Shown here: in pieces, positions 24,890 to 42,254 of the stretch
Numbering within the stretch: position 1 is the first letter of the stretch
Layout of the letters: every line of letters begins with the position of its first letter
From: Lodderomyces elongisporus
Taxonomy: Eukaryota; Ascomycota; Pichiomycetes; Serinales; Debaryomycetaceae
Assembly: GCF_030384665.1 (NCBI RefSeq)
Contig: NC_083676.1
Coordinates: forward strand, 1,302,001 to 1,366,000
DNA: 64,000 nucleotides
Direction: 5' to 3'
Position numbers and translations under genes: made by a program
The notes under the pieces: model-generated
Told to the model about the DNA's origin: nothing
What the model saw: the letters and a program-made list of their open reading frames with translations, nothing else
Database searches by the model: none

Positions 24890-25258
24890 TCAATGACAAC
24901 ACAACTTTGAGAAAAAGCCTTTACTTTCTTCCGCATCTTCGTCGTACTGTTGTTGTTGCTGATGATGTTGTTGTTGCTGTTGTGGGTAATTGTTCATGTT
25001 ATATCCCTCGTATTTACCACCTTGGTCCAATCCTCCGGTGGTTCCTACTGCGCCAACACCGCCATTCAAAAAATCGTTTTGTCCGCCACCACTCATAGAC
25101 TCTTGTTTAATTGGTGGTAATGGTCTATTGACCAAATGTTGTAATTTTTGTTGGTGCAATTGCGCAGCCGACAATTGTTGCTGCGACTGCAAGTTTTGCA
25201 GCTGCTGCAATTGTTGATGTTGTTGCTGGGCCAATTGCAGTTGCAGTTGTGACTGCGA
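24890..25258 (-). pseudogene. YCK2: Severed C-terminal tail of YCK2, with palmitoylation motif
   Basis: This frame is in phase with the kinase CDS just upstream and is separated from it only by the TAA at 25259-25261. It has no ATG at its start. It continues the glutamine-rich tail and then a Gly/Asn-rich linker, and ends ESKGFFSKLCCH, the expected end of a Yck1/Yck2 casein kinase, where the Cys pair is palmitoylated by Akr1 to hold the kinase at the plasma membrane. Conservation of this end shows that the frame was under selection until recently, or still is. It is translated only if the TAA is an error, polymorphic, or read through. Confidence 0.75.
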
Positions 25259-26587
25259 TTATTGAGCTTGTTGTTGTTGCAGTTGCAGCTGCTGAGCTTG
25301 TTGGACCTGTTGAGCTTGTTGAGCTTGTTGTTGTTGTTGTTGTTGTCTGCTCCTCTTTTGATCACGGTGTCTTCTTTCGCGCTCATTCGGTGGATTTGGA
25401 TGGCCGTAACCGTGCAAGTTTGGCTTTTTATTGATTGAAGCATCCCAGCCCTTACCGCCGTTCAAATGCATCCAGTCATAATCTCCGTCACAGCTTTGAC
25501 CCAAGTCATCCAAAATAGACACAAGCAACATTCTATACTCTTCATACGGTGGCTCTGCATCAAATGGCAATGATCTGACCGAGTCCAAGTATTCTGCAAA
25601 TTGGTTGGGCAAGCCGTCACAAAGCGTCACTGCTGGTGTGGTTCTCTTTTTGTCGCCAATCTTCTCATACTTTTGTTTGTTGGTTGGCGCTTTTAAACCT
25701 TGCCATGGTAATTGTCCTCTGAGAAAATAGAAAAACACATGCCCCAAGGCTTCCAAGTCGTCTCTTCTTGATTGCTCTCTACCCAAGTGCGTGTTGATGG
25801 ACATATAACGTGCGGTTCCGCTCAATGACTTCTTTTCTCTATATGGTATGTGCTGTTTCGTTCTTGGGTCTCTATATTGTTTGGCCATTCCAAAATCAAT
25901 CAAGTGGACATTGTTTTCATCCGGCATCCCTTGGCGTCCAATAAGGAAATTATCAGGCTTAATGTCTCTATAAATCAAATCGTGACGATGGACTTCTTCA
26001 ACTAATGTGATCATTTGAATGGCAACTTGAACAACGGTCTTGACTGAGAATCTTCTTCCACACCAATCAAATAGATCCTCCAATGAAGGTCCTAACAAGT
26101 CAATCACCAAGATATTGTGCAACCCTTCTTGACCAAAATAATATGCATTGGGGATACCAGGACATCCTTGCAAATGCTTATAAGTTCTATACTCGTCTCG
26201 CAATTGTGGTGCTTCGGTCTTTCTGGGTTCAAATTTGATACCTACAGGAACACCATTGATGATGTTTGTACCTTCAAAGATGACACCAAATGAGCCTTCG
26301 CCAATTTTTTTCCCAATCTTGTAGTGTAACCCAACTACTGATGAGTTGGAGTTGCTTGCTGCATTTGCTGCTTGGTGCGAAGCAGAAGAAGAGGTAAGAT
26401 TGTTGTTAACCATATTGTTCTTGTTGTTACTGTTGATTATATTATTGCTAGAATGAAGGTGGTGTTGATTCATTCCTCCCAAGGCAGAGTTTTGTTTGGA
26501 CGATGATATTATTGGATTACTATGTGATGCTTGAGCAGCTGCTACTGCTGCTGGATTATTTGTTGTAGTGGAAATGCGGTTTGACAT
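25259..26587 (-). CDS. YCK2: Casein kinase 1, Yck1/Yck2 type, truncated by in-frame TAA
   Basis: Plasma-membrane casein kinase 1 acting in morphogenesis, nutrient sensing and endocytosis. As read, it has 442 residues. A Ser/Asn-rich start is followed by the kinase domain (about 75-365): GKKIGEGSFGVIFEG glycine loop, GIKFEP with the catalytic Lys, HRHDLIYRDIKPDNFLIG catalytic loop, LIDFGMAKQYRD, and the CK1 signature SLSGTARYMSINTHLGREQ. WDASINKKPNLHGYGHPNPP closes the conserved part and is typical of Yck1/2 rather than Hrr25. The frame then enters a Gln/Ala tail and stops at TAA (25259-25261), which differs from the neighbouring CAA Gln codons by one base. The remaining 123 codons, with the palmitoylated Cys pair, follow in the same frame. 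Without them the kinase would be soluble. Confidence 0.88.
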   Translation of the reverse strand: MSNRISTTTNNPAAVAAAQASHSNPIISSSKQNSALGGMNQHHLHSSNNIINSNNKNNMVNNNLTSSSASHQAANAASNSNSSVVGLHYKIGKKIGEGSFGVIFEGTNIINGVPVGIKFEPRKTEAPQLRDEYRTYKHLQGCPGIPNAYYFGQEGLHNILVIDLLGPSLEDLFDWCGRRFSVKTVVQVAIQMITLVEEVHRHDLIYRDIKPDNFLIGRQGMPDENNVHLIDFGMAKQYRDPRTKQHIPYREKKSLSGTARYMSINTHLGREQSRRDDLEALGHVFFYFLRGQLPWQGLKAPTNKQKYEKIGDKKRTTPAVTLCDGLPNQFAEYLDSVRSLPFDAEPPYEEYRMLLVSILDDLGQSCDGDYDWMHLNGGKGWDASINKKPNLHGYGHPNPPNERERRHRDQKRSRQQQQQQQAQQAQQVQQAQQLQLQQQQAQ

Positions 26588-28827
26588 GTATCAGTGAAAG
26601 CCAATTATTACTTGACTAATTTGTTTGTTTGTGTTTGTTTGTGTTTGTTTGTGTTTGTGTTTGTGGATGTTGTAAATGTTGTGAAAGGTGTCGTCGTTGC
26701 TCTTGTGTTTGGGAAACAAATTAGTGGTGACAATGATAATGATAGTGTTGATGAAGAGAAAGAAATGAAAATGGGATTATGATGTTGATGCTATTGTTAT
26801 TATTATTGTTCTAGTGATTTTCTTTTATAATTTCGTGGTTGTTGAAATTATGGTGAAACTTAAAAATTACAATGAATCCTCTAACTTTATCTTTCTTATT
26901 TTCCTTTTTTTTTTTGTGATGCAGGAGTATGTGGTTGTTGTGCTGATGGTAGTAGTACAGGTAGTAAAAAAAAAATAGTGGTTTTTGTTTTCCTGGTTCT
27001 TTGTAAATTAATTGTAATGTTGATTTTATCCGCCAATTAGTTTGTTATACACTGGACAAAATATTGTAATTGCGATTTCTTGCAAGTCGTGGAAAGAAAT
27101 GTCGACCTTGATGTATATCACCCAACGTTTTGGTAGTAATAAAGCTGATGATTATTCACTCAATTTCAAAAAGAAATAATGGGAAAAATTAATCAAAAAT
27201 TAAAAAAGAAAAGAAAAAAAGGGGGAAAAAAAGGGGAAAAAATCAACCAAATCGAATAAAATAGAAAATCAACCTTTGTACAAATTTGTGAGTGCCTCAA
27301 AATCAATGTAAGTTTAGAAGAAAGAACAAACAAACGAAAAGTTGTAAAAATCTTTAATATAATGAAGACAAAAGCTGGAGCAAAAGTAGATGGTATTGAC
27401 GTCAATTGTAATGACAACTATTTTGTTTTGTTGACGAGTAGTGTTTAGTTCTCTATAAGTTATCTCTATCAAAAGTTATAGATACGAGGAAATTCAAATG
27501 TAGATGTGTATCTGAGAATGGTAGTGGCAGAGATGGTGTATATTGAATGAATCTACTTTTGGTGATGACCTAGCGTGTGTGGATGTGTGTATGTAGATGT
27601 GGGTGTAGTTGTAGTTGTAGTTGTAGTTGTGATTGGCTGATTGTATGTAGCAACTGCCACTTTGTTGAGTTCAAATCAGAATTGGTAGTTGAAGAAAGTG
27701 GGTGGAGGAGAGGAGGTCGATTGCCTGTTGAAAATTCTCTCGCTCTGAATTTTTTGTCCTTGTGGATTTTTTTTTTTTATTTTTTTTTATTTCTTTTTTT
27801 TTGAAGAGAGAGAGAAAGAGAGGGAGAGAGAGAGGGAGAAAATTTCTTTTTTTTTTTTCCTTTCCTTTCCTTTTTTATTCCTCCATTGATATTATCAACA
27901 ATCTACAATCAACAATCAATTATTGTCTTTCACACCTTTTTGTTTATTTGGCTAATTTTGCTCTTTTTCCCCCATTGCTTCCAGTTTGTGGTTTCTATTT
28001 TCGTCTATTGCTGATAACCATCGCTTATTCTTCTCTTTTCTTTTTCACCTATTCATTCAATGTGAGAGAAAAAGGGCGCGGGAAAAGGAGAGAAAAAGAA
28101 GAATTGACGAATTGACGAATTCACCCATTCAATATATCTTTTTTTGGTCAAAATTATTGATGAGTCCACTATATACCTGTCTGGAATCGATAGCAGAAGA
28201 TCTACTCTTTAAATTTATGTTTTGCTTTTTTTTTCCCCCGATATTACGTCCTTCTTTCATTCGATCCTCTTCTTAGTAGCTAATTGATAAATTTATACAC
28301 TCTATCTCTACTATCGTAATTTCTTTTTTTATTTTAACTAAACTAAACAACTTTGACAGTATCAAAAGGTTGTAACGTATCCTTGACCTCATTTCTTTGC
28401 TTTGTCCATTTTGCTTCTTTTGTTCAGTTTCTATTGTTGTAGCTGTTGATGAAGTATCGTCTATTATGTGCAATGTATTGTATATACATATATATATATA
28501 TATACACACGGGTGTAAGGGTGTAAGTAAATCTCATACTATACACACAGCCTTATTATATGACTGGTGATCATTGATGCTCAATGCCGCATAAAAAAGAA
28601 ATAAAATAATTTCAAACTCCACAAAATCAGCACCAAAAGCAGACAGATTGTGAAAACAAAACTAACCAAGTTAATATATATATATATATACCTATATATA
28701 ATTTCAAATAAATAGAAAACATATAGCAATTCATATATAGTCGGTCACGTGTATTGAACAACTATCTTTTACTCATACTACCAATCTATATTTCTTATAT
28801 ATATATAATTATGTATTTATTATATAT
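26588..28827. other. Intergenic: YCK2 promoter and 3' region of the HDA2/3-like gene
   Basis: No gene seen in 2.2 kb. It contains a (GTTTGT)n run at 26625-26665, T-rich and GA-rich blocks at 27765-27845, (TA)n at 28490-28504 and 28676-28690, and a CACGTG at 28746-28751 (possible Cbf1 site). Confidence 0.55.
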
Positions 28828-37300: not shown

Positions 37301-38059
37301 ATGGTACAACAAGATAGAATCGTTTTGCACTGGTTAGATCAATCAAGGTCACAACGTGTTGTGTGGCTATTAGAAGAACTTGGTGTAGAATATGAAATTG
37401 TTTACTACAAGAGAGACTCCAACCATAGAGCTCCCCCGGAATTGAATAACGTCCACCCCTTGGGTAAGTCTCCAGTGTTGGAGATTTTCCAACCTAATGG
37501 TGAAACCGTAAAATTAGCAGAATCTGGATGGATTTTCCAGTATTTAATCAACAAGTATGACACTGCCAACAAATTAAAGGGCACCAATGAGACCGAAAGT
37601 AATCAAATCAATTATTTTCTTCACTATAGTGAAGGTACTTTGCAGCCACTTCTAGTTGGACTATTGATAAATCATTTGGCGAGAACAAGACCAATGTTAC
37701 CAATAAGGATGTTGATGGGCCCCTGTGTTGGTGGTATAAACAATAGTTACTACAAGCCGGAGCTTTTAAAGAATGTCAAGTATTTGAATGATATTGTCAA
37801 ACAACAATACAATAAACATAGCAAGTATTTGGTTGGTGGGCAGCTTTCTGCGGCAGATATTATTTTGTCGTTTCCCATTCAGAGTGCAATCAACAGAGGA
37901 GAAATGTTAATCAACCAATCGTTGGAAAATGAGTATCCTGAATTGAATGAGTATTACCAACATATTATCAAACAACCGGGCTGGAAGGCTGCTGTTCAAA
38001 AGGTGAAGGACTTTGAAAAAGTCCTTGGCGATAAGCAACAACCAAACCAGGTTGATTAA
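37301..38059 (+). CDS. GTT1-like: Glutathione S-transferase, GTT1-like (GST-1, intronless)
   Basis: Conjugates glutathione to electrophiles; GTT1-type enzymes are ER-associated in yeast. The 252 residues have the N-terminal thioredoxin fold (about 1-90): IVLHWLDQSRSQRVVWLLEELGVEYE, the cis-Pro strand KSPVLEI, and the gamma-Glu-binding LAESGWI. The helical domain follows with NYFLHYSEGTLQPLLV and LSAADIILSFP, the folding N-cap box. The first of three paralogues within 5 kb. Unlike the other two it has no intron: the Trp codon at HW|LD is continuous. Convergent with GST-2. A HWLD start at residue 11 supports the first ATG at 37301. Confidence 0.88.
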   Translation: MVQQDRIVLHWLDQSRSQRVVWLLEELGVEYEIVYYKRDSNHRAPPELNNVHPLGKSPVLEIFQPNGETVKLAESGWIFQYLINKYDTANKLKGTNETESNQINYFLHYSEGTLQPLLVGLLINHLARTRPMLPIRMLMGPCVGGINNSYYKPELLKNVKYLNDIVKQQYNKHSKYLVGGQLSAADIILSFPIQSAINRGEMLINQSLENEYPELNEYYQHIIKQPGWKAAVQKVKDFEKVLGDKQQPNQVD

Positions 38060-41296: not shown

Positions 41297-42254
41297 ATGC
41301 CAATGTTGCAAGAACAAAAAGTACCAGAAGACAGGTTTATATTGCACTGGTATGTTGATATTTACTTCACATAAGAAACAAGAAATACTACTACTACTAC
41401 TACTACTAAAATAAAAAGATTGGGAAATAACAAAGAATACCTATTTAGATGACAATGAACTATAGACTAACTTTTTCCTTCTTCTTTCTAGGCTAGATGA
41501 TTCTCGTGCACAAAGGATATTATGGCTTCTTGAAATATTAGAACTAGACTACGAAGTGAGAATTTACTTGAGACATCCACAAACATGGCGTGGTCCTACC
41601 CAATTATTTGACGCGCATCCCTTGGGTCGAGCTCCAATCCTTGAGATCATTCATGGGGATGGAAGACCGCCAATGAAACTTGCCGAGAGTGGTTTCATCA
41701 TGCTGTATATATTGAAAAACTATGATCCAAATTACATATTGACACCAACAGACCCCAATGAGCAATTGGAAGTTGAGTACTGGCTCCATTATAGCGAAGG
41801 ATCGTTACAACATTTACAAATGGCATTGCTTATCAACTCTGTTGCCAAACACATTGCACCTGTAGGATTAAAAAGTGTCGCTAACTTGGTTGCTAAAGGA
41901 TTGAACAATGGTTATTATGTTCACGAATGGAGATTACACATGCAATACTGCAATGACAGGTTAGAGCAAAATGGCACCGGTTTTTTTGTGGGAAACAAAT
42001 TGACTGCTGCAGATATTATGTTGAGCTTCCCCATTTATGAAAATATTTTTGACAATCTAGAAGGTGTTAAAGATTGCACACGAGATAAAAGAGATTTAAG
42101 GAAAGTCTGGCCATTCTTGGATAAATGGTGTAGAATGATTAAAAACATTCCATCTTACAAAAAAGTAAACCAGATGATGGACGAAGAAGTTGAGGATTTG
42201 ATTGCGCTTAACCCAAGGTTTGATTATGCTAAAGGCGAGGCAAACAAACCATAA
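41297..42254 (+). CDS. GTT1-like: Glutathione S-transferase, GTT1-like (GST-3, one intron)
   Basis: Third paralogue, 271 residues after splicing. Exon 1 (41297-41349) reads MPMLQEQKVPEDRFILH plus TG; intron 41350-41491 begins GTATGT, has GACTAAC at 41465-41471 and ends TTTCTAG; exon 2 (41492-42254) begins G-CTA-GAT, giving HWLDDSRAQRILWLLEIL. APILEI and LAESGFI form the glutathione site, EYWLHYSEGSLQHLQM and LTAADIMLSFPI the helical domain. The C-terminus is about 15 residues longer than in GST-2. A second ATG at codon 3 is possible. It is followed by the two sulfonate dioxygenase genes on the same strand. Confidence 0.9.
41350..41491 (+). other. Spliceosomal intron in GST-3, 142 bases, phase 2
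   Basis: Donor GTATGT, branch site GACTAAC at 41465-41471, acceptor CTAG ending at 41491. Same codon and phase as the GST-2 intron. A (CTA)n stretch lies inside at 41387-41406. Confidence 0.92.

What the first reader, a model, noticed from the sequence alone, without database searches (positions are those of the whole stretch)
25256..25264. A single TAA cuts YCK2 between the kinase domain and its membrane-anchoring Cys pair
Seen: on the minus strand the frame reads CAA-TAA-TCG at this point, in a Gln tract, and then stays open for 123 codons in the same phase, ending FFSKLCCH. Known: Yck1/Yck2 kinases end in a palmitoylated Cys pair that tethers them to the plasma membrane. The stop is one transition away from CAA. 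No donor or branch site that could splice it out is visible. Either it is a sequencing error or strain polymorphism, a recent loss that makes a soluble kinase, or a read-through codon giving two forms (soluble and membrane-bound). The last would be new. The 3' context TCG is not a classic leaky one, so read-through is the least favoured.
Basis: partly seen in the sequence, partly recalled or inferred. Interest (0 to 1): 0.8.

Follow-up and report, generated by a model that had tools for sequence, protein, structure and literature searches.

The report
Nonsense allele in yeast kinase YCK2
In the reference genome of the yeast Lodderomyces elongisporus a single stop codon cuts off the membrane-anchoring tail of a well-known kinase, while a near-identical copy elsewhere and related yeasts keep the tail; this is most likely a recent strain-level mutation (possibly on one of two chromosome copies), not a new decoding mechanism.

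Summary
The window is L. elongisporus NRRL YB-4239, PacBio HiFi assembly GCA_030384665.1. On the minus strand a YCK2 orthologue stops at TAA 25261-25259 inside a Gln-rich tract; the same frame stays open for 122 codons and ends GFFSKLCCH-TGA. Among 55 scored ORFs the next longest open run after a stop is 45 codons. The tail is genuine YCK2 tail: P0001, an ENA protein, matches head residues 59-442 and the whole tail, except for two extra Gln residues and a sense codon at the stop. Ten further related proteins keep the tail and Cys pair. So an open copy exists in the same or a very near species, no relative aligned shares the stop, and the tail has not decayed. No intron that could remove it was found. 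TAA followed by T is a poor read-through context.

Best reading: a real, recent, strain-level nonsense allele, homozygous or heterozygous in this diploid, giving a 442-residue CK1 kinase without its palmitoylation site. A consensus error is less likely but not excluded, because no reads were available. Regulated read-through is disfavoured. Interest is moderate to low.

The parts
25262..26587 (-). YCK2 orthologue, open part before the stop: 442 codons with the whole CK1 catalytic domain and the start of the Gln-rich tract
   Evidence: Pfam Pkinase 2.8e-25; chain 36jc_A, named YCK2, 2.8e-207
25418..26350 (-). CK1 kinase domain (residues 80-390 of the head)
   Evidence: best match 9edy_A, E 1e-210, covers query residues 80-390
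25259..25261 (-). in-frame TAA stop, context CAA TAA TCG
   Evidence: 'stops_inside 1 TAA' when searched with the natural protein P0001
24893..25258 (-). 122-codon open tail in the same phase, not translated unless the stop is read through
   Evidence: identical to the last 122 residues of P0001
25100..25174 (-). conserved tail block LSAAQLHQQKLQHLVNRPLPPIKQE
   Evidence: QLHQQKLQ-x-LVNRPLPPIKQ is present in P0001 and in all 10 further proteins aligned
24893..24919 (-). C-terminal GFFSKLCCH with the Cys pair that is palmitoylated in S. cerevisiae Yck2
   Evidence: [quoted passage not shown]
24890..24892 (-). TGA at the ancestral end of the frame

Best explanation
The TAA is a real, recent nonsense allele of YCK2 carried by the type strain, either on both homologues or on the one that hifiasm chose as primary. 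It arose in a long Gln-rich tract, where many codons lie one transition from a stop. Translation ends there and gives a 442-residue CK1 kinase with a complete catalytic domain but without the C-terminal Cys pair. By analogy with S. cerevisiae Yck2 it should be soluble, not held at the plasma membrane. The loss is tolerated because catalytic function is kept in part, because a second CK1 with its own C-terminal Cys pair exists in the genome, and, if the site is heterozygous, because an intact allele remains. Shown: the stop, the intact tail, the open copy elsewhere, the conservation, the paralogue. Inferred: zygosity, solubility, tolerance.
For: The assembly is HiFi (min-rq 0.99, hifiasm, primary contigs) of a diploid; substitution errors in such a consensus are rare (recalled). 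The other 24 scorable window ORFs show no comparable break. P0001 (ENA) agrees with head residues 59-442 and with all 122 tail residues, apart from two extra Gln residues and a sense codon at the stop, so it is another allele or strain. 117 of the 123 relatives listed have CC within the last 12 residues. Conspecific clusters differ by 176,721 to 177,579 SNPs, and isolates show heterozygosity, LOH and stop-gained or stop-lost alleles against the reference. In C. [quoted passage not shown] The paralogue in L009 ends CFFCCW.
Against: No read, second assembly of the strain or transcript was seen, so one consensus base carries the claim. The assembly used only reads over 20 kb at 25x. In S. cerevisiae the palmitoylation of Yck2 is described as necessary for its function and membrane localisation, so a homozygous loss might be costly.
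Confidence: 0.78

Rival explanations
1. Consensus or culture artefact: the base is wrong in this assembly, or arose in the colony that was sequenced; the type strain's YCK2 is intact.
For: One base decides; P0001 and the 10 further relatives aligned are open there. Only 25x of the longest reads was assembled.
Against: HiFi substitution errors that survive hifiasm are rare (recalled); the other scorable window ORFs show no similar break.
Confidence: 0.15
2. Regulated stop-codon read-through: the TAA is kept on purpose so that one mRNA gives a soluble short and a membrane-bound long kinase.
For: The tail is intact and identical to that of P0001. Yeast tRNA-Gln can misread UAA (passage of PMC5289835), which would put Gln into a Gln tract.
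Against: No relative aligned has a stop there, including P0001, so there is no conservation. UAA is described as the least read-through stop, and +4U as lowering read-through in S. cerevisiae (abstract and passage); the context is UAA U. Of 251 genomic CAR-CAR-TAR-CAR-CAR sites, the 20 given as loci (all on contig C1, some overlapping) were examined and none sits in a frame open for long on both sides, so no sign of a general Gln reading of TAR in that part. A tail this similar to P0001's is also expected if the stop is simply young.
Confidence: 0.04
3. Basal, unregulated read-through gives a trace of long kinase that matters for viability (can be true together with the best explanation).
For: Misreading of UAA by tRNA-Gln in yeast; a membrane kinase may be needed in small amounts (inference).
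Against: Same tight context; a paralogue with a Cys pair exists; C. albicans grows without Yck2.
Confidence: 0.1
4. Splicing removes the stop.
For: Weak donor-like strings: GCATGT at 25742 and GTATGA at 25670 and 25547, besides bare GTAT or GTAA.
Against: No CTAAC branch motif in 26787-24701; the branch-like strings found are CTAAT 26724 and TTAAC 26409, upstream of those donors, and CTAAT 24792, past the gene end. A normal-looking intron in this window, about 41350-41491, carries GTATGT, GACTAAC and TTTCTAG.
Confidence: 0.01

Closest known systems
Yck1/Yck2 plasma-membrane casein kinase 1 (S. cerevisiae; C. albicans Yck2)
   Same: Kinase domain closest to solved Yck2-type chains and casein kinase I homolog 1; Gln-rich linker and Cys-pair end present in the DNA
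   Different: A stop lies between the kinase domain and the Cys pair in this assembly
C. albicans yck2 insertion mutant expressing a truncated Yck2p (discussed in PMC5673188, passages seen)
   Same: Conserved catalytic domain kept in a truncated protein; the cell lives, with delayed yeast-to-hypha transition
   Different: Made in the laboratory by insertion; here a natural point nonsense codon
Fungal functional translational read-through (peroxisomal isoforms of glycolytic enzymes; recalled, related papers seen only in the listing)
   Same: A stop followed by an open tail that carries a targeting signal
   Different: Those cases are recalled as using a leaky TGA-CTA context and being conserved across species; here TAA-TCG and not conserved

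Membership tests
YCK1/YCK2-type casein kinase 1 | CK1 catalytic domain closest to Yck1/Yck2 | tested here: met
   Pfam Pkinase 2.8e-25. PDB: two chains named only as Ser/Thr kinase (1e-210, 1.2e-209), one named YCK2 (2.8e-207), casein kinase I homolog 1 (5.7e-170), casein kinase-1 1csn (1.5e-138), then CK1 gamma, alpha and delta
YCK1/YCK2-type casein kinase 1 | C-terminal Cys pair in the translated product | tested here: not met
   Encoded at 24893-24919 but after the in-frame TAA
YCK1/YCK2-type casein kinase 1 | Akr1-dependent palmitoylation and plasma-membrane location | not testable with these tools
   Known for S. cerevisiae from passages of PMC2846877 and PMC8331233
Programmed stop-codon read-through | Stop and open tail conserved across species | tested here: not met
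   The tail is conserved, the stop is not: none of the 11 related proteins aligned stops there, including the near-identical P0001
Programmed stop-codon read-through | Leaky stop context (such as TGA-CTA, or stop-CAA-TTA; recalled) | tested here: not met
   TAA TCG CAG; +4U lowers read-through in S. cerevisiae (abstract of PMC5289835)
Programmed stop-codon read-through | Extended product or footprints after the stop | not testable with these tools
   No reads or peptides available
Nonsense polymorphism or recent pseudogenising allele | Open copy in the same or a very near species | tested here: met
Nonsense polymorphism or recent pseudogenising allele | Stop confirmed in independent reads, zygosity known | not testable with these tools
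   Reads and the two older assemblies of the strain are not held

The most novel reading that the evidence does not exclude
The TAA is fixed in the type strain and read through at a set rate by tRNA-Gln, so that one mRNA makes a soluble and a palmitoylated Yck2; a strain-level, Gln-tract-embedded switch between cytosolic and membrane CK1.
Probability: 0.04. Interest if true: 0.7.

Novelty: new member of a known kind. Interest (0 to 1): 0.3.

Why it matters
If it is real, the type and reference strain of L. elongisporus carries a natural truncation of a nutrient-signalling and morphology kinase, so work that uses NRRL YB-4239 as the species' wild type should allow for it. It would also be a natural test of how much of Yck2 function needs the membrane anchor. 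If it is an error, it is one base to correct in a reference.

Tried and rejected
Splicing out the stop: rejected (splice signals of a normal-looking intron in the window). General reading of TAR as Gln in this genome: no sign in the 20 of 251 pattern sites examined. A second full YCK2 copy in the assembly: none seen among 33 matches; the next are a 63% paralogue with a Cys pair and a 48% CK1 without one. That 48% match also shows 'stops_inside 1 TAA'; by its coordinates and this is its own end stop. Relatives in prokaryote genome contigs: 5 loci, distant kinases of 24-26% identity. Published YCK2 of this species: the search for 'Lodderomyces elongisporus' plus 'YCK2' gave two unrelated papers (listing only). 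Read-through plus casein kinase plus three more terms: no paper. Butler et al. 2009 is not held. The other window ORF that runs on after its stop (41673-42254, GST-like, 37 codons) belongs to what looks like an ordinary spliced gene, and its extension is low-complexity.

Weak hint not used as evidence: no protein visibly named as L. elongisporus was among the 120 listed of 7991 hits, so the RefSeq form could not be compared.

Full report
What the window is. It lies at C4:1302001-1366000 of a genome of 16,086,460 bases in eight contigs. That is the exact size and contig number given for the PacBio assembly of Lodderomyces elongisporus NRRL YB-4239, GCA_030384665.1 (announcement PMC10586162, read through its Data Availability section, first of two parts). 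The strain is described there as diploid. The assembly holds hifiasm primary contigs from CCS reads over 20 kb at 25x. The paper says table 12 was used for translation, and so did I; table 12 does not change the meaning of TAA.

The observation. On the minus strand an ORF of 442 codons runs from 26587 to TAA at 25261-25259. The same phase is then open for 122 codons and ends GFFSKLCCH before TGA 24892-24890. The other two phases of that stretch hold 4 and 5 stops. As a null, post-stop runs were measured in the window's other ORFs of at least 150 aa: 24 of 25 were scorable, at most 37 codons. With loci already fetched from the same genome, 55 of 57 ORFs were scorable; the YCK2 run is the longest at 122 and the next is 45. 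Those loci were chosen as kinase or Gln-pattern hits, not at random.

What it is. The head carries a protein kinase domain. Its best solved relatives are two chains named only as Ser/Thr kinase (1e-210, 1.2e-209) and one named YCK2 (2.8e-207), then casein kinase I homolog 1 and casein kinase-1 1csn, and only then CK1 gamma, alpha and delta. In a protein search the best hit is P0001, an unnamed ENA protein of 509 aa. P0001 begins at residue 59 of the window protein. Over residues 59-442 it differs from the head only by two extra Gln residues in the Gln tract; it has a sense codon where the window has the stop, and it ends with exactly the 122 residues of the tail (P0001 is translated by the standard code, so that code was used for the comparison). 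The 10 further proteins aligned, 9 from named yeasts such as C. parapsilosis, C. margitis and C. pseudojiufengensis and one filed under an Asgard MAG, are 82-88% identical to it, and all 10 hold QLHQQKLQ-x-LVNRPLPPIKQ and end in KLCC plus one residue. Of the 123 proteins listed (the best 120 of 7991, and 3 more of 52), 117 have CC in the last 12 residues. The six without are P0046, P0079, P0081, P0109, P0111 and P0123, of which P0081, P0111 and P0123 are marked partial by their source and P0079 ends CFCF. So the tail is the normal YCK2 tail, a copy with an open frame exists in the same or a very near species, and none of the sequences aligned shares the stop.

Copy number. The assembly shows one YCK2, one 63% paralogue ending CFFCCW on the same contig (L009) and one 48% CK1 without a Cys pair (L010; identities). 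The labels YCK22-like and Hrr25-like for these two are recalled.

Can the cell avoid the stop? No GTATGT or GTAAGT donor and no CTAAC branch motif occurs in 26787-24701. Weaker donor-like strings exist (GCATGT 25742, GTATGA 25670 and 25547), but no branch-like string lies between them and the end of the gene. A normal-looking intron elsewhere in the window carries GTATGT 41350, GACTAAC 41465 and TTTCTAG 41485. Splicing is therefore rejected. Read-through would need UAA followed by U. PMC5289835 (abstract and passages) says that read-through is least at UAA and that +4U lowers it in S. cerevisiae; it also says, on the other side, that yeast tRNA-Gln can misread UAA. None of the relatives aligned shares the stop. 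Whole-genome sites of the form CAR-CAR-TAR-CAR-CAR number 251, against 156 for the reversed control pattern. I examined the 20 that were given as loci, all on contig C1 and some overlapping: none has long open frames on both sides of the TAR (best 57 and 2, or 17 and 89 codons).

Most likely account. In the head 41 codons are CAA, CAG or CGA (36, 4 and 1), each one transition from a stop, which makes such a mutation unremarkable. The species is diploid. Two clusters of isolates differ by about 177,000 SNPs, and isolates show heterozygosity, loss of heterozygosity and stop-gained and stop-lost alleles against this reference strain (abstract, one section and passages of PMC10294660). A passage of PMC8712946 suggests allelic length variation within the sequenced strain. 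A recent nonsense allele in the type strain, on one or both homologues, is the simplest account. A product of 442 residues would keep the kinase and lose the Cys pair. In S. cerevisiae palmitoylation of that pair by Akr1 is described as necessary and sufficient for membrane localisation (passages of PMC2846877 and PMC8331233); the former also reports that glucose-induced Mth1 degradation persists without Akr1, so some functions survive mislocalisation. In C. albicans the yck2 null grows as pseudohyphae-like chains, and an insertion mutant expressing a truncated Yck2p with the catalytic domain has a delayed transition (passages of PMC5673188). A truncated allele is thus compatible with life.

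Limits. No reads and no other assembly of the strain were available, so zygosity and a consensus error stay open. The P0001 source gives no organism. Identity of the tail to P0001 shows only that the stop is young, not that the tail is under selection in this strain.

Noticed in passing
window 37301-38059 (+) and about 41297-42254 (+): Two GST-like genes lie about 3 kb apart on the same strand; the second appears to have an intron at about 41350-41491 (GTATGT, GACTAAC, TTTCTAG), so the simple ORF list gives it a false short start at 41673.
   Followed up: partly
protein hit P0009: A YCK2 84% identical to this yeast protein is filed under an Asgard archaeon MAG; most likely yeast contamination of that MAG.
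   Followed up: no
L009:1303-2664 (G000:C4, about 801302-802663, +): A 453-aa CK1 paralogue with a short N-terminus and a SCFFCCW end, probably able to be palmitoylated; it could share work with YCK2.
   Followed up: partly
whole genome G000: CARCARTARCARCAR occurs 251 times against 156 for the reversed control; the 20 sites examined are not in long open frames and look like repeats read in another frame.
   Followed up: partly
window 26621-26665 (-): A CACAAACA-type repeat lies about 35 bases upstream of the YCK2 start codon.
   Followed up: no
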